Assembly: GCA_012976225.1 (NCBI GenBank)
Contig: JAAVVG010000003.1
Span: 868,001 to 932,000, forward strand
Length of the DNA stretch: 64,000 bases
Direction of reading: 5' to 3'
From: Golubevia sp. BC0850
Taxonomy: Eukaryota; Basidiomycota; Exobasidiomycetes; Golubeviales; Golubeviaceae
The notes beneath the pieces are model-generated. The model did not search any database and was not told the origin of the DNA. It saw only the letters and a program-made list of their open reading frames with translations. The position numbers and the translations under genes are program-made. Shown in pieces: positions 9,452 to 62,600 of the stretch; position 1 is the stretch's first letter; every line of letters begins with the position of its first letter.

Positions 9452-9746
9452 TCATCTTTCCATTATGATTTCCATCACCAAGGAGCTTCTCTGAAATAAG
9501 ACTTTTTCAATAACATGTTCGTGCTTTCCCTCTTCAAATGTCGCTCATTCTAATCTCATTTCTACCGTCGCTTTTTTTTCGCCTGCTACCCAAACGCTTT
9601 GTTTTCGCTTTCCATTTTGGCAATTGAACGACCACGTTCTTTCCTTCCTTCACGCACTTTCTGTATATTCATCAAAATAAATCGATCGAAATGAATAAGA
9701 AGCTACACATTGAAAGACGAAGGATCTTAACAGTTAATTCTCCCGA

Positions 9747-26200: not shown

Positions 26201-27278
26201 CTGGTTCTTTTGGGAGATTTCTCTTCCATCGTCGATGCTCTGCTCCTTGGAAGACTCTGCTTCATGAACCTCCAGAAGAGTTGTCTTTACCTTCTTCCAG
26301 CCGGTTCTTGGGCTGAATTATGGGCAGTTCTACTCTCCTTCTTCTTCGGTCTACCTCAAATTCTATCTAACCTACAGGTGAGCTCTTGGGAACTGTGTCA
26401 CCTAGGAGAGGTCGCACTTTATTTTAGTTCAATAGTTTAATTTCAGGGTAGCTCCTTGGTGATGGAAAGCTGGGGGATACAAATGCTCCGACTCTGAAAT
26501 GCTGACGCTATGCATTTCTCTTTCTCATTCTCTTCAAACCAGATGATCTTCATCTGCTGCTTGACTGATTTAGTTCCTTCGCTGGCTCTTACTCAAGAAA
26601 AAGCGGAAGCTGATCTTCTGACTCGTAAGCCAAGGAACGTGAAGAAAGATCACATCATCTCATGGAAACTACTTTTGCATGCCTATCTTCTGGTTGGAAC
26701 TCCAATCACGGTCTGTGCAAGTTCTCTTGCCTTCTTCCATATGCAACGTCAAGGGATTCCATTTTCTAACATGTGGCTCAAGTATGGAGGAGGATCGATT
26801 CAAACTTCCAACCCAGATTACTTCAACGAGATCCTCTACCAAGCCAATGCCATCTACTTCTTTACTTTGGTTATCATGCAATGGGGTAATTTACTTTCAA
26901 TCCGTACCAGAACTCTTTCATCAATTTTCCAGCAAGTTCCTCTGGGAAATCCAAAGACCTCGAATTGGACTTTGTTCCCTGCCATGGCTTGGTCTCTGAT
27001 CGTAGCCGTAGTGTTGAGCTAGTGAGTCGTCGGTCTTTCTTGTTCGCCAGTAATCTCTTCCCATCAGCTATTGACCCTTCTTCTTTTACACACACACACT
27101 CTCTCTCTCTGTTTCCAGCATCCCTGGTCTTCAAGACGTCTTCTTGACTCGCGGAGTCGACGTCGAATACTTCTTTATTCCCTTAGCTCTGGGAGTCGGA
27201 ATGCTGTTCTTGGACGAAACCAGAAAGTTTTTCGTCAGAAGATATCCAAAAGGACTCGTAGCCAGAATTTCCTGGTAA
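23221..27278 (+). CDS. P-type alkali-cation ATPase (ACU / Na+,K+-ATPase-like, type II)
   Basis: Eight exons (23221-23536, 23627-23878, 24011-24633, 24713-25192, 25267-25740, 25832-26377, 26543-27021, 27119-27278) give 1109 residues, all in phase. P-type hallmarks are the actuator motif VLTGESDP, the phosphorylation site CSDKTGTLT with the catalytic Asp, KGAPD in the nucleotide domain and the hinge TGDGVNDAPSLK. The M4 ion-site helix reads FIPEGLPIAVT, the N-terminus has LDWHEI, and the end is KGLVARISW, which fits fungal ACU and Na+,K+-ATPase-like pumps rather than ENA or PMA pumps. The likely job is uptake or exchange of Na+ or K+ at the plasma membrane; ion choice cannot be read from sequence alone. 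The last intron carries an AC/CT microsatellite (about 27089-27110). Confidence 0.92.
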
Positions 27279-41995: not shown

Positions 41996-43182
41996 TCTTC
42001 TTGATTCAGTGTCGTGTCCCGTCCTTTTGTCGATTTTGTATTCTGACGTCTAGCAAAGCAATAATGATAGCTCTCTCAAATTTGTAAATCTATCTCTGAT
42101 TTAATGAAAAGACTTCATTCGAACTGATCGGCAAGAGATCTTCACTGATGCTTAATCGAAGCAAGCTATTAGGAAAGTCGACTGCATCGCAATGATCTTA
42201 CAAAGTAGGGTTTCTACGGCGCACTTCTCTCTTGGAAACCGAGAGAGTTCGAGTGTCTTGATCCTATCTCCAATTAAAGAGTGGAATGGAGAAGAAGCGA
42301 GAGTGGACTATGGAGATTGAAAATTGTGGGAGTCGTTCTCTCTCGTCTCTCTTCTCTATCCTCTTTTCTCTTTTCTTTTTAACTCTCTCAACTCTCTTTT
42401 CACATGTAAGCCATAACAACCCAACCTCATGATCACTCTAAAATCCAACTACGTTCCGTCCCACTTCGAATCGCACTTCTATCCTCATTCCATCCACCTG
42501 ATCCGATACAGGTCTCACCGTTCAATGGCCGTGTCACCATATCCAACCTGATTCATCGACTCGATCTGAAAACTCATCTCTCAAATAAAGCTCCTTGAGA
42601 TGAGCTTGGTTCTAACTGATGAAACAGTTCTTTTGGACAGCGGGATGCTGGGTGAACTGTGAGAACTGGCAATCAGATGCTTGGGAGGTTAGATTCGAAG
42701 GAAGAACTCTTCAAAAAAAACGCATACACTTTCTGGATTTTCAACTTATCAAGATCTGATCTTCACTTCAACTAATCTTATGTACCTTGCCTTACTACAA
42801 CCAGTCTCAAAAGTCAAACCTGAGGTGAGTGATGAGAAGAGTCGAGCGCAGGCTTCAAAGTCCGATATTCGACAAAAGAGACTAGGAAAGATTCTCAAGA
42901 ACCTGATTCTTTGGCTTATAACTCGCACGTCTGAACACCATCTTGCAAGACTTCAGCAGGGGAGCCCGACTTGCTTCACTGTGCGTCTCCTCTGCCTTTC
43001 CGTGTTCGAACTTTTTCTGATGTTCCTTCTTAAGATCTTGGAAGGACTGAAACTCAACAGATCTCAAGGTCTTTCCATTCTGGAGGAAACGAGCGCCGCT
43101 CTGAGTCGCAGTCGCTCAGTTCAAAGGGTGGCTCTCCTTCTTATCCTGCTGCCAGCTGCCACCGCTCATCGAATCTTTCATC
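41996..43182. other. Intergenic region upstream of SDS22
   Basis: About 1.2 kb with CT-rich tracts (42340-42400) and an A-rich run near 42713. The open frame running into the SDS22 start has no recognisable content. No gene is supported. Confidence 0.5.
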
Positions 43183-46833: not shown

Positions 46834-47311
46834 TGAATCAAATGGTCCCAACCCGTCTATATCTTGCTTTGCATATGGAATTCAAAGCTTTGGCGTTCCC
46901 AAGAAAAGATCGCCAAGCTGAAAGAGTCCGATTCGTCCGTCTAATCCACTGAACAGAGCTTTCCGGAGCGTTCATTACACCTTACATCTTTCTGCATCAC
47001 CTTAAGCTAGTAAACGCCAGGGATCAGAGGACAGAGAGAAAGCGAAGCACACTTCACAACGAGAGAGAGAGAGAGAGATAACGCGAGAAAGGGTAGTTCT
47101 TTATTCAAGAAGCTGACGGAAGTACAAATGAAATAGTTCTAGATGACAGGGAAACCAGAAGTAAGGAGTGTGGGAGTGGTATGGCGAATAGGAAAATAGG
47201 AGATGTAGAAGCGAAGAGGGTTAAACGATGCCAAGAGAGGTATGAACAGGGAGAGACGCAGCAAGAAGAGGACCTCCTGACTGTAGGGGCGATAGAAAGT
47301 GAGACCGTTCC
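46834..47311. other. Convergent spacer with a GA microsatellite
   Basis: About 480 bp between convergent stops. It contains (GA)9 at 47061-47078. No gene is seen. Confidence 0.55.
47061..47078. repeat. (GA)9 microsatellite
   Basis: A perfect dinucleotide run in the spacer between the SNARE and the secreted-protein gene. Confidence 0.95.
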
Positions 47312-47940
47312 TCAGTTGTAACCATCTGGTAGATATAAGGCTGGGGCACCAAGGGCAAGGATGTTACAGTTGTTGATGAAGGCTGTGAAAGAGAGAGATG
47401 AGGATAGGTTGAGAAGGGGTGAGCGGCTGGCGACAAGACAAAGAGAGGGCACTGAGATAACTCACCTTGCTTGGCTCCTGGTCCCTTGGCCTTGCAGAAA
47501 CGAGTCTTGACGCTGCATGTGTAGGATCCGCTAAGAGAGTAAAGGCAGGAGATGAGGGAAGAATCAGTGCCAAGTTCGACGAGGTAAAGCAGGAATATAA
47601 GACTCACTCTTTTGGGTAGACTGGCTCATCGTCATCTTGGAGGTAGATGTGACATGATCCTAGGTGCTTGTCAGTCTTTGAGGAGTGCAGGGAGTACTCG
47701 AAGTTCTTTCCAGAGAAGGTTGGGAGCTTGAGTCCGAGAATGCGACGCTCTGAAAAGGGGAAGATTGAGAAAGGGAGAGACGGAGCAAAGTGAGTAAGGT
47801 GCGCAATGAAATAGACGATACAGGATTGAAACAAAACATTGACACACACCTAGATCAGATTCTCCAGCTTGTTCAGTGGAGGGAGCAGCAGCGACGAAGG
47901 CGACGAAGGCAAGGGAGAGGATGGATTTGATGGCGACCAT
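47312..47940 (-). CDS. Small secreted cysteine-containing protein
   Basis: Four exons (47940-47850, 47749-47608, 47530-47466, 47382-47312) give 122 residues. The first 19 residues are a clear signal peptide (MVAIKSILSLAFVAFVAAA) with a hydrophobic core and small residues at the cleavage site. The mature part of about 100 residues has four cysteines (SCHIYL, YTCSVKTRFCKAK, NNCNIL), enough for two disulfides, and no recognised domain. A TATA-like box 127 bp upstream suggests regulated, possibly strong, expression. Size and features fit the loose class of small secreted proteins that includes effectors and surface proteins; nothing shows which. Four exons in such a short gene, all closing in phase, support it as real. 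Confidence 0.78.
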
Positions 47941-49159
47941 GTTTGTGATTTGAGAGTTTCCTTTAAAGAGAAGAGGAGAGTAGAGCAAGAAAAAGAGATC
48001 AAACAGATGAGAGAGAGAGTTTTGTGGATGAGGTGAATAGCAGAATGCAAAGCGAAATGGCTCAGCTTTTATACCCTTTCGGGCTCATCCCTTGCTTCTT
48101 TCAACCGTCCCGTGTTTCTTGCTCAATCAGCCAAAATCGCTTGTACAAAAAGAAGGAATTCGACGTGAGCAAAGGTAAAGTTCTGGAAAAGAAGGCTGTC
48201 AATGCACATCGCCCCCTGCTTCGTTGCTTGTTTCCCCTTCCTCCTGCCAGATGCCAGTCCCGAAACTGTCTCTACCCCTGAGAGAAATTTTCATTCTCCC
48301 CCTGAGGCATGCGGGCGGGTTCCTTGAGCCTATACACAAAGACATGCTAGCAGAATGTTTCAGAAGGTTTGTTGAAACTTTTTGCGGGACCGGTGAAGGC
48401 ACTTTAGGGGGAGAAAAGAGGAGAAAGGAGAAAAAGCTTCCCTCGGGATTTTCACTAGCGTCTCACATGTCAGAGGGGTTTGAAAAGGAAGCAGCAAAAA
48501 GAGGAGAGGGCGTAATATCTGCGCTTCGCTTGTCCCCCTGAATCTCCTTTCGGCTTCCCTGACTCGGGCTGAGATTTAAGGTTGTGGAGCAAGGGGTTGC
48601 TTAATCTGGAATCTGGAAAGCCTCTTCGAGAAGCGCGAGGAGATTGATTTCTTGATTGTTTGGCAATTCGTCGGACTCTCTCGAACTTTTGGGGATTCCC
48701 AAAAACAGAATATTGTGAGAGAGCAAACAACCAAGCATCAAGGAGTTTGACGGAACGAGGCGAGAAGGTCCCGTTACGCGTCCAGCAAGTTGAATGATTC
48801 CGCATCCAGGTGAGCTCACAAGTTGCCACCATTCAAGCATTCCTCTCTTCATTTCGCTTGATCGAGGTCTGTATATGTAACCCAAACAAATCTTGTTTAA
48901 TTTTCTGGGTCGTCTGACTGGTTGACACACGACTGTGATATAACCGACAGACTGGCACGCAGCGTATTGGTCTTGCTTATCTCGCTACAGTACTTTTCAT
49001 CCTTTGGAAATCCGGCTTTCACCAAGACCCCTGCTGGAAGGAGACAAGCAATGTTTTCGACTCAATGCAGATACAAACGAAGTGAATCCAAGTTGGCCGA
49101 AAGAAGTATAGAGACACATGGGACAGAGCGAAGAAGAGGAAAGTGAAGGTGGCCTTCAT
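47941..49159. other. Intergenic region upstream of the secreted-protein gene
   Basis: About 1.2 kb between the secreted-protein start and the SLY1 stop. Apart from the TATA-like box at 48067-48073 I see no regulatory signature. Open frames of 105 and 120 codons (48224-48541 plus, 48470-48832 minus) overlap each other and have no recognisable content. Confidence 0.5.
48067..48073 (-). promoter_or_regulatory. TATA box of the small secreted-protein gene
   Basis: TATAAAA on the minus strand, 127 bp upstream of the start codon. Confidence 0.5.
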
Positions 49160-53057: not shown

Positions 53058-54214
53058 ATGCTGTTTTCTTCCAGTCCTCTCTTTCTCTCTTTAATATTTT
53101 CTTTCGTTTCTTCAAAAGCTCTGAGTCTCCCGGCTCCAGAACCAGCCAAGCAAGCACTGCCGCCTCTACCAAACGCCATCATCGCAGATCTTCAAACTCG
53201 ATTGACAGAAAAATTCACTGTTGTCACGCACGGGCCGAAGAAAGAGCATCTGGGAACATTAACTGATTGTGATGTTCCAAAAAGTGTCGCCTTCAACTAT
53301 GATGACGGCGTTTACAAGTGGGCGTCTGAGCTCGACGATTTGTTCAAACCTTTCAAAGGAGGTGAGTCTGGAGCTTTTCTCTAGCGCCCCATTTTGTTCG
53401 GAGCTCTCTGACGATTTGTCTGTTGTTCCCAACTCCCTGTTTCTCAGCTTATACCAAATTCATCAACGGGGCCAATTGGATGCCATGCATCTATGACCAA
53501 GAGGAAGTTGATTCTCTCCGAGCCAGCTACGCTGCTGGTGCTTTGATCGGCTCTCACACTTGGTCTCATGCTGATTTGAACACTTTGGTGAGTTTTCTCA
53601 TCAGATGTATTCAACCGCGATTCAGATTTAATCGAGGTCGACTCCCTCGGAGCTCTTGCTTACTCACCTCGATTTTTCTCCTTGATTTCTCAGACGCACG
53701 ACCAAATCGATCAAGAAATCGAGGCCATCGAGATCGCTCTCTACAAGATCCTAGGAATCGTTCCGAGAATTCTTCGCCCACCTTACGGTTCGTGCAATGA
53801 TGCATGTGCCGCCTACATCAACAAAAGGCATGGTGAGTAAACCCGAACTCCCCTGCTCAAAGAGTGCTCTCGCTGACGGTTTGCGCTCTTCTCCCCCTCC
53901 CAGGATACGTGGTCGTGAATTGGTCCGTAGACAGTGCAGACTCGATGGGAGCAACTCCAGACGCTTCAATCGCAACTCTAACTGCACAAGCAGCCAACTA
54001 TCCGGCACCAGTTCTACCTTTGATGCACGAGACCTATCAATCCTCAGTGGAACAAGTCTCGCCGGCCGTCGTACCTATCTTCAAAAAAGCTGGGTATGAG
54101 TTGATGACCGTGGCCGAATGCTTGAAGGAGAGTCCTTACAAACTAGTTGGAAAGCCTCAGAAAAGGGATGAAACCTGGACTTGTTCAGGCGCTTTGCCTT
54201 ACAAGGGAATGTGA
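53058..54214 (+). CDS. Secreted chitin deacetylase (carbohydrate esterase family 4)
   Basis: Four exons (53058-53361, 53448-53587, 53694-53832, 53904-54214) give 297 residues. A hydrophobic N-terminus (LFLSLIFSFVSSKALSLP) is a signal peptide. The NodB catalytic motifs are present in order: AFNYDDGVY with the two acidic residues, SHTWSH with both metal-binding His, RPPYGSCN, NWSVDSADS, and LMHET with the final His. The enzyme removes acetyl groups from chitin at the cell wall to give chitosan, which strengthens the wall and can reduce recognition by host chitin receptors. The C-terminal KRDETWTCSG block resembles fungal Cda tails. No GPI-anchor signal or chitin-binding domain is seen, so a soluble or wall-trapped enzyme is likely. 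Confidence 0.94.
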
Positions 54215-54416
54215 TACTTCTGTAGACACCTTTCAAATTGCCGACCGCCCTCTCTTAGCACCTTTTTCTTCAGTGTCACTTTACTCTCTTGCTTAATACT
54301 CATCTTCAGTCCTTCTCTTTAATCTCGATGTCTTCGCTGCAAAGAGCTTCAACCTCTCGCTGTCTCACACAGATTATTTCGGGGATAAGTCTGATTCCGT
54401 TACACTTCGGCGCCTT

Positions 54417-54641
54417 CAGAAAAACGCTTAGGAGAAGCGTCAGAGCGATGGTGGAGAACTTTGCTGAGGGAAAGAAGAATGGCGACATCCCTGTGCCTCC
54501 AACCGCGATTAACCCTTGCAAGAAGCTATCGAGAGTCACTTTAACAGTTCTTCAAGTAAGGTTTGATTCGGTTGCCTTTCTGTACTTTCGCGCCTGGACT
54601 TCGAAATGTAGATTCGTTCGTTGGAACAGCAACGGTGCGAA
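54417..54641 (+). repeat. Inverted, diverged copy of the acyl-CoA synthetase 3' end plus spacer
   Basis: Read on the plus strand this segment matches the minus strand of 59368-59613 at roughly nine bases in ten by eye, with one deletion of about 15-20 nt. It encodes remnants of the synthetase C-terminus ([13 protein letters not shown], then EGKKNGD). Similarity continues past the synthetase stop through most of the spacer to the VPS3-like gene. There is no upstream coding part, so it is a fragment without function. It lies just downstream of the chitin deacetylase gene, in a convergent spacer. Confidence 0.9.
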
Positions 54642-55041
54642 GGCTCCCCCTCCGAGCTTCTTTGAGCGAACGCTGAATCTAGCAAGGAAAAAGGGACAGA
54701 GGGAGAGCTCTTCGAATAGAATCACTCCATTCGAAAACCAAGATGCTCGTTCAAGAATTCCGACGTCGTCACAAGCCGTGACTTTGTTCCCTCTCTCCTT
54801 CTTTCCATTTCTTCAACCTCCATCTACTTCGGCCGCCTCGAATTCATACTGAGCTCTACTCGCGATAAATCCAGCAAATTCAGTCTTAGTTCTCAGTCCT
54901 TTGGAAGTATGGCTGAATGCTTGAGGGTGCAGAGTCCGAGAGAGAGAGTCAAAGATCATCTGACATCTCACACACAAATGCACAGATATTCTGTGCGAGG
55001 CGGGGGTAGAAGTCATTGAACGAGAAGAACGGATACAGGGC
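54642..55041. other. Spacer below the VPS3-like gene
   Basis: 400 bp between the inverted copy and the VPS3-like stop, in a convergent arrangement. No gene or signal is recognised. Confidence 0.5.
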
Positions 55042-58000
55042 CTAAGATACATTTTGGAGGGTTTCATCAGCTAGGTCGGCGGGCTTGACAAGTTCTTTGT
55101 CAAGTTTGACCTTCGGTTGATCGACATTGCCTCCTAGACCCGCTGTCTCCTTATCGTTAAAGTTTACCTCGTACACCGTATTTGTCTCTTCAGCTTCACC
55201 AGATCTTTCTTCATCATCTCCCTCATCTTCATCCTCTTGAAGAATCCCTCCAAGAGCTCTCGTCTTGGCGAAGCTCTGCTCATGGATCTCCAGATTCTGA
55301 GCCAAAGCTAGAGCGGAAACGATTTGATTTTCTTGCCTTTCATGCATGGACCTTCTGAGAGATCTAGAGAGGAATGTTTCGAGAGTAGAAACTGACCATT
55401 CGGGTGGAACTAGAGATAAAACGTCGAGAGGTTGAAGATGTAAAGCCTGAGTATTCAAGAGATGAGCTGTTGCAATCTGGAAGTGCTGGCTATTGAGAGA
55501 TGGAATAAAGGGGGAAGCAAAAGACAGTAATTCATATCAGTCCGATCCTCGAAGGGAAAGGTCAGTCGAAATAGTTTGGGAAAACTCACTCCTTGCCGTT
55601 TTCCATGTAAACCTGCAGCAAGGTTTTAAGCAACTTCTGTTTCTCATCAGCGGTAATTTTGAGTCCCGATCCATTCTCTTGAGGTGTTTCCTGCTCAAGC
55701 TTATTCTTCGACAGAGTAGCCTTTCCTCCCCTGGATACCAGAGTGGCATACATCTTGAGTCCGTGATCTTGAGCGACAGCTTCAGCTAGCATAGGAGATA
55801 GAACAGCTCCAGATTGAGAGCAGTAAGCTTCAGAAGAATTGGCGTCCCGTAAAGAGAGAGCTAGAAGAGAAAGCGCTTCTTTGTGTTGTCCGAGCTGCGA
55901 TAGAAGCGGCGGTGAAGAGTCAGCACAATCAAAACCCCACCCACCAAACGCTCGTCTGCTCCACCGGAAAGTTTCGAAGATCTTCAACTCACCTTCCCCA
56001 AGAGGATCGACTTCTCATAAGCAAGCAGATCGTTTCCTTCAATTTTCTTGAGAATACTGTCCACATCAAAAGCATTCGAACCTTGAAGAGTCATACTCAG
56101 CTTCAGTCTCTCCAGAGCGACTTTGGACACGGAGGACGCTGAGTCTTGAACCTGACGTTTGGCTTGGGTAGTGAGGCTGAGCTTCTGTTCGGCGGGTGCA
56201 GCTGAGGAAGCGTGCAGAGCTAGATGAGCCACGAAAGACTCTGCGTAATGACCCTGAGAATAGTCTCGTTCTAAAACAAATAAAGGAGATGGGAATACCC
56301 GAGTCAAAAAACGAACCCTCAATAAAGAATACATTGTCTTCGACCCGACCAATACCCTCGAAGAACTCACCAATTTCAAGCATCGCTTTTCTCGTTTCCT
56401 CGTCCTTCAATCCTCCCAACACTCTGTTCAGCAGTAGTTCCACCAACTCTGCGTGAAGGTCGGGAACTTGCTGCTTTCTAGAAAGTACCATGTGCTCCAA
56501 GAACGCTTCAGCGGCGCCAGGATCTACTCCTCGGAGCCGATTTAGAGTAGCAGTGTGATCCTCTGTCGAATTGATGGAACTTTGAGGTTGTTGAGTAGGA
56601 CGCTTTGAGGTCTTGCGAGTGAGAATCTTGACTCCTCTCTCGGCATCTCTTTGAGTGACCCAGATTCCGTATCGATTCAAGAGTCCCGAGTCGTCACATT
56701 TCTCCAAAACCTTGACCACTTCTTCCAAGTTCTCTTCAGGATCAGGCTCGAAGTCGACGTCTAACAGCTCACCGTCGATTAATCTGGAGAGAAAGAAGTG
56801 AGTGCAACGCGAGTCAGACCGAGATCGATATAGAAAACAGTAGATACAGTCGTGTCTCTTACTTACTTGGTCCAAATTTCCAACATGTCTTCCCATCTTC
56901 CTTCCTTCTCGTACCACTTCGCCAGTGCGTTGTATCTTCCCTTTTCTTTGAGAAAAGGTTCCAGAATTTCCATATCGCACTTCGAGCCTTTGCTGATCAG
57001 CAAACTGGCCAGAAGCTCTCCGAAGGGATGGGCGGCGACAGTAAATCTGCTGAGGTCTCCTACGCTCAGATCCGGACCTTCTCCCGAGATCTCTGGTTCG
57101 TCGGAATCTCTGTCGAGAGAGAGAATCTTGGCCAAGGAGGTTTCGAGTAGAGGCAAAAGATCTGCTGGAGTTGAAGAAGAAGTTCGAGAGGCATCTAAGA
57201 CTCTTCTCACCATTTCCCTAGATCTTCGGGAGAGAAGTCTTTTGAGTCGCAAGATTGAAGGGTTAGTCTTCACGTCCAGCGCAGGCGCATAGTTGAGACT
57301 CAGATTTCGTAGAACTGTCGCGAAACAGTGGAGAAATGGAGATGAGATTGAGTCTTCTCAAATCGTCCTCACGAACGAGACAAGGCCAAAACTCACTCAT
57401 TTCTTCAGCACTCTCCCATTCGCTGACTTCTTTCTTTAACCCATTAGGAACCTTCATCTTGAGATTAGTGCCGGAAGCGTCGGTCTTTGCATCCCAGATC
57501 TCTGGAAGCATTCTCAGAACTTCTCTGAAGTCGGATTCAGCCTTGATGTAGTGTCTAGCAGCTCTTGCGAATCTCAAAGCCTTGAGATGATGAAGAGCAA
57601 TGACGTGGTGGAAGTATAGCAAAGCCGGCGGCTGATTGCACCGGGTAAGGGAAGAAAGGAGTGAAGGTCAGCTTTCAGAACTCACCTCCCAGGCAATTTT
57701 TTTTTGCATCACTCACCCGCTCCTCGTCGATGCCGGCTTCCATCTCCTCTGACCCGACCAGCCTCTCCAATTCCTCCCAATTCTCTCTTCTCAGAAGCCT
57801 TCCAGCTTTGATCGTGAAGCTTGGTTGGCAGATTGCTTGAACTACATTCCTACCAGCCAATAAAACTCTAGCAGGGGTGGTCGAAGCTCCCACTTTCTTC
57901 TCCTCTTCCTCACGTCCATCTTCAACTCCGTCTGTTCGCTTGAAGTGGTCTACAATAACTATCTTGAGATTTGCTTCTCCTCCCCCATCGTCCATTCCTA

Positions 58001-59316
58001 TCCTGGTGACGTTCGTACCAGAGCTTAGTGAGCGAGGTTCCAATAGATCTGGCAGCTGAATGACTTGTCTTCTTGAAAGACTCAAATCTTCGAGAGATAA
58101 GTCGTGAACCTCCAAAGTGTTGTCTCTGAGAAGCGAGATAAGGTTCGGAGAGTCGTAGGCTAAAGATCTAGGATGACTTCTCCATTCCAAGAGCTTGGGA
58201 GAAGGCTCTCCAGAAGGAGTGATGAAGACTCCTAGCGTCATGTCTGTTGAATGACTTGTGATCAGGAATTCGCACCCTCCGCCGCTAGTTGATGGTATTG
58301 AGACTATAGAGGGCTTCACTTGAGCAGTTGGGCTGTCAGTGACTTGAGAGATTGGTAGACCCAGTGGGATTAATTGAGAAGTCGAGAGGTTCAGAAGAGA
58401 ATAGGTCGAGGTGTCGCTGAAGAGCAGCGTGTCCCCATAACGTCTTGAGAGGGTGACTCCATTTGCAATAGGCATTTCCTGGTACAGTTGGTAGGATGAG
58501 TCGATCAAAAGAGTGAGTCTCACTGGCAGCAAGAGAAAAGCCTCTGAACCTTCCTCAATCCTTCGACCTGGACACCTGAACCTTGCTCCCTCTTCACCTG
58601 ACGTCGTCTTGTAGCTCAGAACTCACCTTGATCAGACCCCAGCCCTCCTTCCCACACTTCAAAAGCAGCACACTTCTTCTCTTGACCACACAGAGCGAGA
58701 CCATGCCCTGGCCATCTGTGCCGCCTTGCTTGAGGATCTCTTCATCGTCTAGGACTACAGACGCAACTCCCTTGATCCTTGGGAAAGAAGAAGATGAACT
58801 GGAGTCCAGTGATATGAAATCAGGCAGAGAGTAGAATGTGATTGCAGATTCTGTAAGGAGAGGGAGAGGAACTTTAGGACTGATTGTGGTTCTGCCAGTT
58901 GCGACCCGAGTTCCTGCTCACCACATTGTACCACAGCCAGATCCACCTTTTCTAAGAGCAGGATTCTTTCAACTGGCTTGTTAGACGACGAGATGGAACG
59001 GGTGTGAAGCAGCGAAAATTGATTCGGCTGGAGGAGAGGAAGAGTTAGAGGAAGAATGAGAAGGTGCCATCGAATTGCTTTGAAGTGCCTCTCTACTGCA
59101 TATGATACTTACATCGGTTGAGGAACCTTGATTGCTTAAGCTATAAACGTGAACCTGGCCATCACTTGATCCCAGATAGAGGTGATTGACTGAACCTTCG
59201 ATGGATCTGACGGCTCTGGCTGTGGCAGCTGGAGAAGTTGGATTGAATGAATCCAAGTTTGGCAGAGCTGGGAACAGCAAAGGCTGGAGGATGTAGGGTG
59301 AATTGCTTTCATCCAT
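55042..59316 (-). CDS. VPS3: VPS3/TGFBRAP1-like CORVET subunit
   Basis: Ten exons (59316-59113, 59027-58922, 58850-58627, 58478-57717, 57631-57397, 57314-56867, 56783-56371, 56270-55993, 55894-55590, 55489-55042) close in phase to 1140 residues. The N-terminal third is a CNH (citron homology) beta-propeller (HLYLGSSDGQVHVYSL, WGLIK joined to EMPIANGVTLSRRYGD). The rest is helical, like Vps39-type tethers (LLYFHHVIALHHLKALRFA, YNALAKWYEKEGRWEDMLEI). The C-terminal block PLDVLSLVPPEWSVSTLETF, then RRSMHERQENQIV, is closer to TGFBRAP1/Vps3 than to Vps39. The product should tether early endosomes via Rab5. The acidic tail ends in a disordered stretch. An inverted repeat brackets the whole gene. 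Confidence 0.86.
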
Positions 59317-59367
59317 TTTTGAAGTAGAAGGGAAGGTTGTGGCGAGAAGCAAGAAGAAACGCCTCGC

Positions 59368-59613
59368 AAGTCGCACCAGTGCTGTTCCAACGAACAGATT
59401 TACATTTCAAGGTCAAGACGGAAAAGTACAAAAAGGAAAGCGAATCAAAGCTTACTTGAAGAACCGTTAAAGTGACTCTCGATAGCTTCTTTGCAAAGGT
59501 TAATCACGTCCATGTCTTCCACGGTTGGAGGCACGGGGACGTCGCCGTTCTTCTTTCCCTCAGCAGAGTTCTCCACCATCGCTCTGACGCTTCTTCTAAG
59601 CGTTTTGCCTGAT
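59368..59613 (-). repeat. Source copy of the inverted duplication
   Basis: This block covers the last 56 codons of the acyl-CoA synthetase gene and most of the spacer up to the VPS3-like gene. Its reverse complement recurs at 54417-54641. It lies inside an intact gene, so it is taken as the original. Confidence 0.88.
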
Positions 59614-62600
59614 CTAGTTTTGGGTAATTTGGATACCAGAACTAATCCGGAGAGTTGAGCGATAGGCCCAAGCTCCTCTCGAACGTGTTTGTTGATGGCA
59701 GCGAGAATCTCTCTCGACTTGGGGTCATTCGAAGACGAGGCAGCTTGGCCAGTTGAGACGACTGAAGCAGATGGTACCAGTAAGGCGAAAGGTGCTTGAC
59801 CTTTCATCTTGTCGGGGGCACCCACCACGCAGCACTGAACGAAGGGTAGGGGCAAGGGGAAGGACAGGTCAGCTTCTGCGAACCTCTGGTACGCGCAGCC
59901 TGCGGCCAAATCTACACTTTGATTTGTACCCTCTTGGAACTTTACTCTGCCCGCCTCGTTACTACGCTCGTGTCTCACTAGAACCGCACGGAGAACTCGT
60001 CCTTCCTTCGCTTCCCCCGCCACCCCTCCCCTTTTTCTTTATCTCTACACCAAGAGGCCCCAACATCACCTTAAAAGTTTATTCAATTCAACTCAATTCA
60101 ATTCCTCCCCTTTCTCTTTTCTGAACCGCTAGCGAGAGGCAATCTCTCTACTTCCGACACTCACCTCAATGACGTTTGCATTGTCAGTTACGATCTGTTC
60201 GATCAAGTTCGAAGAAAGTCGATGAGCCGAAACGTTGATGATATCATCGCTTCTGGCGAGAATGGTGATGTATCCATCTTCGTCAACGACAGCTTGATCT
60301 CCAGTCTCGAACCAATCTCCCTTGCCTTCGAAGCGCTCCATGTAAGCTTTATGGAATCCTTTTGGATTCTTCCATAGTCCACCAAGAGCACTTGGAGCCA
60401 GTGGGGTCTTGATCACTAAACTTCCCATTTCACCTTGCTTGACTTCCTTTCCATCGTCATTTACGATTCTGACGTCCATTCCAGGCATGGCTAGACCAGC
60501 GGATCCAGGTCTTGGGACGAGATGGCCGTGGGCTGTTGACAGAGAAAGACCAGTGATGAGATTTCCGATCTCTGTTGACCAGTAATTGTCGATTACGACA
60601 GCGTTCGGAGCACACAACTCTTTCAAGAGTCTTGCGAAAGATGAAACCAGCTGTGGTTCTGATCTCTCTCCAGCGAGGAACAAGGCTCTCAAGGTCTTGA
60701 GATTGACAGCAGGGTTTCTCATGAGGTTAGCCTCTGGATCTTGACCTTTGACAGCTCTTAGAGCGGTAGGAGCAGTGAACAAGTGGGTGACTAGTAAGAG
60801 AAGAAAAGGCGAGAAGTTGGAGAAGTTGGAGAAGTTAAACAAGTGTATGAGTAGCGACTTCCTGGCACCGCGACTGAGACTCACCACCAAGAGAAGAGAT
60901 TGTTCTCCAAAGAATTCCGGCATCTGGAAGGATTGGCTTTCCTTCAAAGATTACAGTAGAGGCTCCGAGCAAGAGAGGTCCATAGAGCTGGGCGAGGTAA
61001 AGAGAGGGAGAGACCGGAAAGACAAAGGTGAGAACTAGATCCTCTTCACTCTCTCGAATCTCGATTCTTCGTGCTCTTCGCCACTCACGATGTAGGAATG
61101 TCCGACCACCCATCCCAAATCCGAACTAAGATCGAAGACAGAGAGACAAGATCAGTTCGAGGTCTCCCCGTTCTCTTCTTCTTCGTCGACCCATGTTACT
61201 CACCCACAAAGCATGATGTCGTCTTTCTGCATTCCAAACACATGCTCAATCGAATATCTCAAAGAGACAGCATGACCTCCTGTCAATCTGACAACTCCCT
61301 TTGGAGCACCAGTGGTTCCAGAAGTATCTGTTCAATGGAACAGAGGTTGAGAAGAAGAGATCAGCAAACGTCAGGCAAGCTTGCCAATCGAGAGTACTCT
61401 TTACTCACAGAGAGTGTAGGCCGGCTCTTCGCTTGCCACTGGAACGCATTCCCAGCACTTGCTTCTTCCACCGACACCTCTTCTAGTGAGATCCATCTCA
61501 GTCTCCCAGTCGAACTCTGGGATTCCACCAGGACCTTTTCCTCCATCTGGAGCTAGTTCGGGTGGAGTATGACCTTTGATAGTATGTCTCTTTAAGAAGA
61601 GTAGACCTTTGGAAGGCTTGTGTTTTGAGATCTTCAGAGCTCCATCTACGAGAGGCTTGTACTCTACAGGTCCTTTTGGTTCGATTCCACAGCTGGCAGA
61701 AATCACGAAGGTACAACCTGAGTCTTCGATTCTCTTGGCCAACTCCTTAGAAGCAAATCCTCCAAACACGACAGAATGGACGGCCCCTGAGAAGAGTTGG
61801 AGGGAAGGGGAAAGAATGTCGATTAAAAGAGAGCAGCAGGATCTGTTAGCTTCATCAGGTCTTCAACTCGCCTATTCTTGCACAAGCTAGCATACTGAAG
61901 GCAGCTTCTGGACACATTGGAGAGTAGATTACAACAGTGTCACCTGGGGAAAAGTGAGGAAGATTAGAGACAGGTGTCAATGAAATTGAGTCAAACTTGG
62001 GAAAACAGAGAATTCCCAACTCACCCTTCTTGACTCCTTTGGATTGGAGCACTCCCGCCAAGGTTTGGACTTGTTCAAGAGCTTCCCCGTAAGTGATGGC
62101 CTTGTATTGGTTGGTCTGGAAAGACATCGGAGAAACATGATGGAAGGCGATCCTCTTTGACAAAAAAGGGTCAGGAGCGATGTCTGATCGAGACAAAGAA
62201 AGTCAGGGTGGAGAGTCAGAGAAGAGTTGGGTACTCAGAAGGAGTCAAAGATCGAGCAGACAAACTCACGGGGTGTACTTGGGCTTGCTGTGACTGGCTG
62301 GGAGTAAGGACTCAATCCAGCGTAGACATGTCGATCCAGGCAGTTGAAGCAGGTGTTCACTGTAACATGATGGAAAAGATCAAAAGTCAGCTTCATGCCA
62401 TTCTGCTTTCTCTAAATCGTTGACTCTCTCCATTGCCATGGTTCAAAGTACCATCGAAGATTTTGGTCTTGGGTTCAGTTTCACTTTTTACTTTGAGAAG
62501 GCATAGGACACAGCAGTCCAAGTTAGAAGCTTCCGAGTCTTCCTGTAGCACCTCCAACCTCCATCTTCGATCTTTCTTTCGCCCTCCCATCTCCCAACTA

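What the first reader, a model, noticed from the sequence alone, without database searches (positions are those of the whole stretch)
54417..59613. Inverted duplication bracketing the VPS3-like gene: likely scar of a local inversion
The 225-bp block 54417-54641 is the reverse complement of 59368-59613 (the acyl-CoA synthetase C-terminus plus its spacer), with about nine in ten bases shared and one 15-20-nt deletion. The two arms flank exactly one gene, 55042-59316. Inverted duplications at both ends of a segment are the known signature of an inversion created by staggered breaks. The alternative is an ectopic gene-fragment insertion. The divergence suggests that it is not recent, yet homology extends through non-coding spacer, so it is a DNA-level copy and not a retrocopy.
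Basis: partly seen in the sequence, partly recalled or inferred. Interest (0 to 1): 0.72.

Follow-up and report, generated by a model that had tools for sequence, protein, structure and literature searches.

The report
Old inverted gene-end copy beside VPS3
A 220-base piece from the end of a metabolic gene sits a second time, flipped and decayed, on the far side of the neighbouring gene; it is an ordinary scar of a past DNA rearrangement, probably a flip of one gene or a repair copy.

Summary
The inverted pair is real. Window 54421-54640 (+) matches 59606-59371 (-) at 197 of 220 aligned bases, with a 15-nt and a 1-nt gap in the left arm; no third place was found in the 25.77-Mb genome. The right arm is the end of a PrpE/acetyl-CoA-synthetase-like gene (ending -SKL) plus 74 bp of spacer, up to 54 bp from the start codon of a VPS3-like gene. 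The left arm is a frameshifted dead copy. Similarity stops near both edges; no poly(A) run or target-site duplication was found. So it is most likely a DNA-level inverted duplication bracketing one gene. A one-gene inversion with staggered ends is slightly preferred, because the 128-bp synthetase-VPS3 gap is shorter than any tandem gap a crude gene finder gave at four of five settings; but that finder never separated this pair. An inverted repair copy is nearly as likely. No fungal relatives are held, so the decisive test could not be run. In 294 kb of the same contig one other local pair (>=100 bp, >=80%) exists: 3260 bp, one mismatch, also inverted, 4810 bp apart. Known kind of scar.

The parts
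54421..54640 (+). Arm A: decayed inverted copy of the synthetase end and its spacer; 15-nt and 1-nt gaps shift the frame
59371..59606 (-). Arm B: last codons of the synthetase (KTLRRS...SSSKL*), stop at 59447-59445, then 74 bp of spacer
   Evidence: the protein aligns with 5gxd to query residue 588 of 601
55042..59316 (-). The single gene between the arms: VPS3-like, 12 exons in my model, 1095 aa, Vps39_1 domain
59445..62127 (-). PrpE/acetyl-CoA-synthetase-like gene, source of the block; start codon uncertain (62127 scores best of those tried); the long models splice past the 59445 stop, which is taken from the open frame
53058..54214 (+). Polysaccharide-deacetylase-like gene left of arm A (Pfam hit on one exon only, 20 bits, below the 23.1 cut-off)
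54215..54420 (.). Outer flank of arm A, 206 bp; query 54213-54420 found only its own place in the genome
54641..55041 (.). Inner flank of arm A, 401 bp, up to the VPS3 stop codon; found only its own place in the genome
59317..59370 (.). 54 bp between arm B and the VPS3 start codon, the other inner flank

Best explanation
Shown: a 220-bp inverted copy of the synthetase end lies on the other side of VPS3; arm B keeps an intact end of the gene and arm A has decayed. Inferred: one event made it, an inversion of the one-gene segment. The right end was cut in staggered fashion inside the synthetase end, so that after filling-in the overhang was kept by the synthetase and also carried to the far side by the flipped VPS3 segment. 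Before it, VPS3 would have lain on the + strand downstream of the deacetylase-like gene and convergent with the synthetase. The pair has no present function in this reading.
For: Edges: 2-7 of 20 identical bases per step outside, 15-20 of 20 inside in the steps shown; no significant homology beyond. Flanks matched nowhere else. Gap from the synthetase stop to the VPS3 ATG of 128 bp, against 0 of 28 tandem gaps that short and 0 of 27, 31, 35 and 38 at four settings, as if VPS3 had been brought there. Implied ancestral gaps: about 260 bp (tandem) and 475 bp (convergent; 6 of 21 convergent gaps are that short or shorter). A published staggered-break inversion left duplicated fragments of 380 and 128 bp, and truncated copies decay while functional ones are preserved (passages of PMC5080602). 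Small inversions 'could be common' in yeasts (passage of PMC6168568 citing Seoighe 2000); frequent inversions are proposed for filamentous ascomycetes (passages of PMC3219968).
Against: The break would lie 54 bp from the VPS3 start codon and would remove its old promoter. The implied ancestral tandem gap of about 260 bp is itself in the low tail (<=262 bp: 0 of 27, 1 of 31, 3 of 35, 2 of 38). My gene finder joins close tandem genes: this pair is wholly fused at three of five settings and its last synthetase exon is joined to the VPS3 start at the other two, so short gaps are under-counted and the pair itself never enters the list; at the over-split setting 6 of 43 gaps are <=128 bp. If the two genes were one transcription unit, the gap argument would lose force. 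Score-dependent hints of homology beyond the edges exist; if homology into the VPS3 5' end were real, a simple inversion would be excluded. No outgroup.
Confidence: 0.46

Rival explanations
1. Inverted copy-and-paste: during repair or replication the machinery switched template, copied 220 bp of the synthetase end about 5 kb away in inverse orientation and joined it into the interval between the deacetylase-like gene and VPS3. VPS3 never moved.
For: Needs no promoter change; the target is the interval between two convergent 3' ends, 607 bp before the insertion (10 of 21 convergent gaps are <=609 bp). In the youngest C. elegans cohort most same-chromosome duplicates are adjacent and inverted, though not in older cohorts, and in humans the excess is not significant (77 inverse, 66 direct; passages of PMC4546093). 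A second, young inverted pair about 230 kb away carries a whole predicted gene in each arm, so local inverted duplication recurs here. Inverted duplicates at inversion ends may be repair footprints (passage of PMC7584159).
Against: Requires that the 128-bp synthetase-VPS3 tandem gap existed beforehand, which looks unusual here at four of five settings.
Confidence: 0.43
2. Retrocopy: a 5'-truncated reverse-transcribed synthetase mRNA inserted near VPS3.
For: The copy is 5'-truncated and ends 74 bp after the stop, which could be 3' UTR; intron loss cannot be tested in the copied part.
Against: No poly(A) run (longest 5 A in the 60 bp downstream) and no target-site duplication (longest shared string 4 nt, reached by 4524 of 5000 random pairs); lands 5 kb from its source.
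Confidence: 0.04
3. The pair is the conserved core of a longer old inverted duplication (synthetase end to VPS3 start) kept alike by gene conversion.
For: Left flank: 4 of 1000 or, over 50 bp, 27 of 1000 shuffles, 3 of 2077 to 486 of 2065 null windows by span and scoring, 1, 1 and 0 of 852 in register (that null set was not cleared of the locus itself). Right flank: 4 of 1000 or 732 of 1000 shuffles by span, 14 of 2065 to 1804 of 2074, 15 and 1 of 320. Coding part differs at 9/146, spacer at 14/74 (Fisher p 0.005).
Against: Anchored pair-HMM: left 84-142 of 2749 null windows do as well, right 1263-1466 of 1932, joint 0.16-0.22 (it punishes a long gap heavily). Protein-level test: 674 of 1914 (VPS3 start) and 1417 of 2762 (synthetase) null windows do as well.
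Confidence: 0.04

Closest known systems
[quoted passage not shown] Drosophila subobscura O4/O8 and D. mojavensis 2h/2q (PMC5080602, PMC3355041: passages seen)
   Same: Single-copy, non-repetitive segment, which may include a truncated gene, duplicated inversely at both ends; the functional copy is preserved and the truncated one decays
   Different: Here the segment between is one gene of about 4.3 kb, and the uninverted state is not known
Local inverted gene duplicates as described for C. elegans (PMC4546093, passages seen; the primary work is recalled, not read)
   Same: Same chromosome, close by, inverse orientation
   Different: The inverted excess there is in the youngest pairs; ours is 0.22 substitutions per site apart in the spacer
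Foldback inverted duplications of yeast (PMC10622511, passages seen)
   Same: Inverse orientation, DNA-level
   Different: Those start at short inverted repeats with spacers such as 6 or 35 bp and extend to the chromosome end; here 4730 bp lie between two short arms

Membership tests
[quoted passage not shown]
Inversion by staggered breaks | The segment between is inverted relative to the ancestral order | not testable with these tools
   no fungal relatives held; searches returned no fungal locus
Inversion by staggered breaks | Duplicates absent from the uninverted arrangement | not testable with these tools
   no population or relative data
Retrocopy | Poly(A) remnant and target-site duplication | tested here: not met
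Retrocopy | Loss of introns | tested here: inconclusive
   the block lies in the last exon and spacer; the only intron-like stretch in it (59455-59382) is present in both arms, but it is not known to be an intron
Transposable element with inverted ends | Many copies in the genome | tested here: not met
   2 places found
Foldback palindromic inverted duplication | Arms adjoining or separated by a short spacer | tested here: not met
   4730 bp between arms

The most novel reading that the evidence does not exclude
This fungus repeatedly makes inverted duplications at a near-fixed distance: the only two local pairs (<20 kb apart) of >=100 bp and >=80% identity in 294 kb are both inverted, with 4730 and 4810 bp between arms, one old and one with a single mismatch in 3260 bp. 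A process with a preferred reach of about 4.8 kb could be a standing source of one- or two-gene flips and new gene copies. Against it: only two cases, and at a looser cut-off inverted and direct local pairs are equal (6 of 12 in 264 kb).
Probability: 0.05. Interest if true: 0.6.

Novelty: new member of a known kind. Interest (0 to 1): 0.3.

Why it matters
Taken alone it is a small fossil of genome rearrangement. It would show how a vacuolar-trafficking gene can come to lie 128 bp behind another gene. With the young pair on the same contig it offers an old and a fresh example of possibly one process, so that inversion against copy-insertion could be settled by comparing a few related genomes.

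Tried and rejected
Flank homology: the first alignments suggested degraded homology beyond both edges under some scorings, which would have excluded the inversion. Stricter tests against genome windows did not support it, so I treat it as unproven.

Relatives: two viral-contig scans and one genome-contig scan, each with one exon frame as query, gave 0, 0 and 2 loci, the last two bacterial. A 5.8S rRNA search, meant to help name the organism, found none in the assembly.

Repeat-directed C-to-T mutation: differences do not pile up as C-to-T in one arm (8 C/T and 5 T/C), so no such signature is seen; 23 differences are few.

RNA silencing by the inverted pair: 14 exact 21-mers are shared (of 200 and 216), but no Piwi-domain match was found in the own genome (its control rang in 1 of 14 genomes; the same kind of search found 19 septin matches). 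The RdRP search is uninformative because its control rang nowhere.

Literature: nine paper searches and passages of seven papers; I claim nothing about absence from print.

Full report
The window lies at C33:868001-932000 of an unnamed 25.77-Mb genome in 64 contigs; intron-rich genes and gene content suggest a fungus (my inference).

Observation. The pair is 54421-54640 (+) against 59606-59371 (-): 197 of 220 aligned bases identical, one 15-nt and one 1-nt gap in the left arm. The alignment score is 299 against a maximum of 29 in 300 base shuffles. In the whole genome only the two arms were matched.

What the arms are. Arm B is the end of an AMP-binding enzyme (PF13193 and PF00501) closest in the PDB to 5gxd, an AMP-dependent synthetase, and then to acetyl-CoA synthetases. 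The last residues are SSSKL, which reads as a peroxisomal targeting signal (recalled, not tested). After the stop, which ends at 59445, there are 74 bp of spacer inside the arm and 54 bp more to the ATG of the VPS3-like gene at 59316. Of nine differences in the coding part, six would be replacements and three silent when put into the B codons; arm A also lacks 15 nt and is frameshifted by a 1-nt gap: a dead copy as far as the synthetase goes. The spacer part differs at 14 of 74 sites and the coding part at 9 of 146 (Fisher p 0.005), which fits a constrained arm B, though the contrast is somewhat larger than I expected from a neutral arm A.

Edges. In 20-nt steps identity falls from 15-20 of 20 within the arms (steps shown) to 2-7 of 20 outside. 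Alignments beyond the edges looked notable under some scorings and not under others (left 3 of 2077 to 486 of 2065 null windows as good, right 14 of 2065 to 1804 of 2074). An anchored pair-HMM test did not support them (left: 84-142 of 2749; right: 1263-1466 of 1932; joint 0.16-0.22), nor did a protein-level test. The right edge may be off by a few bases. This matters: homology into the VPS3 start would exclude a simple inversion.

Mechanism. Retrocopying is unlikely. A transposable element is not suggested by copy number. Two DNA-level routes remain: a one-gene inversion with staggered ends, or an inverted repair copy. A crude gene finder on 294 kb (pairs with a gene model under 300 coding bases dropped, under 400) gave tandem stop-to-ATG gaps with a median of 852 bp and a minimum of 285 bp (28 pairs); the synthetase-VPS3 gap is 128 bp, and 0 of 27, 31, 35 and 38 tandem gaps are so short at four settings. 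This leans towards VPS3 having been brought there. But the finder joins close genes: it fuses this pair at three of five settings and joins the last synthetase exon to the VPS3 start at the other two, and at an over-split setting 6 of 43 gaps are as short. So the lean is slight. Against the inversion stands the cut 54 bp from the VPS3 start. I put inversion at 0.46 and inverted insertion at 0.43.

A second case. Self-comparison of C33:678001-972000 lists 12 pairs at E <= 1e-6; 6 lie less than 20 kb apart (4 inverted, 2 direct), and 2 of these are >=100 bp and >=80% identical: the present pair and a 3260-bp pair with one mismatch (C33:682018-685277 / 690088-693347), 4810 bp apart, also inverted. 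A looser search of 264 kb gave 12 local pairs, 6 inverted, so there is no general excess of inverted pairs. The arms of the young pair hold a whole predicted three-exon gene, so that copy is DNA-level if the introns are real; between them lie a leucine-rich-repeat gene (LRR_9; I recall U2A' as its likely name) and a septin gene. The two arms are the only places found for that block. Two cases cannot establish a preferred spacing, and an assembly error in the young pair was not excluded.

Known kinds. Inverted duplicates of single-copy DNA at inversion ends are described in Drosophila (passages of PMC5080602 and PMC3355041), with the warning that they may be repair footprints (passage of PMC7584159). 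In C. elegans the youngest same-chromosome gene duplicates are mostly adjacent and inverted (passage of PMC4546093). The finding is a new member of a known kind.

Noticed in passing
C33:682018-685277 and 690088-693347 (L023, L022): 3260-bp inverted pair with one mismatch, 4810 bp apart, bracketing a leucine-rich-repeat (LRR_9) gene and a septin gene.
   Followed up: partly
window 59382-59455: A GTAAGC...CAG intron-like stretch (GTAAG and CAG also kept in arm A) whose removal would drop the SKL end and run the synthetase frame in frame into the VPS3 start codon; the gene finder joins across it in some form at all five settings.
   Followed up: partly
window 54289-54852 (+): A 187-codon open frame (TTG start) runs through arm A and beyond despite the frameshift; no Pfam match at E<=0.001.
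   Followed up: no
window 42490-42677; C33:741720-741988; C33:781533-781805: Dispersed repeat of about 180-270 bp at 81-84% identity, three copies in the surveyed stretch.
   Followed up: no
window 47029-48433 and C33:962217-963811: Inverted similar stretches in three pieces, 72-89% identical, about 46 kb apart.
   Followed up: no
window 9469-9506 and 26431-26468: 38-nt inverted match, 87% identical.
   Followed up: no
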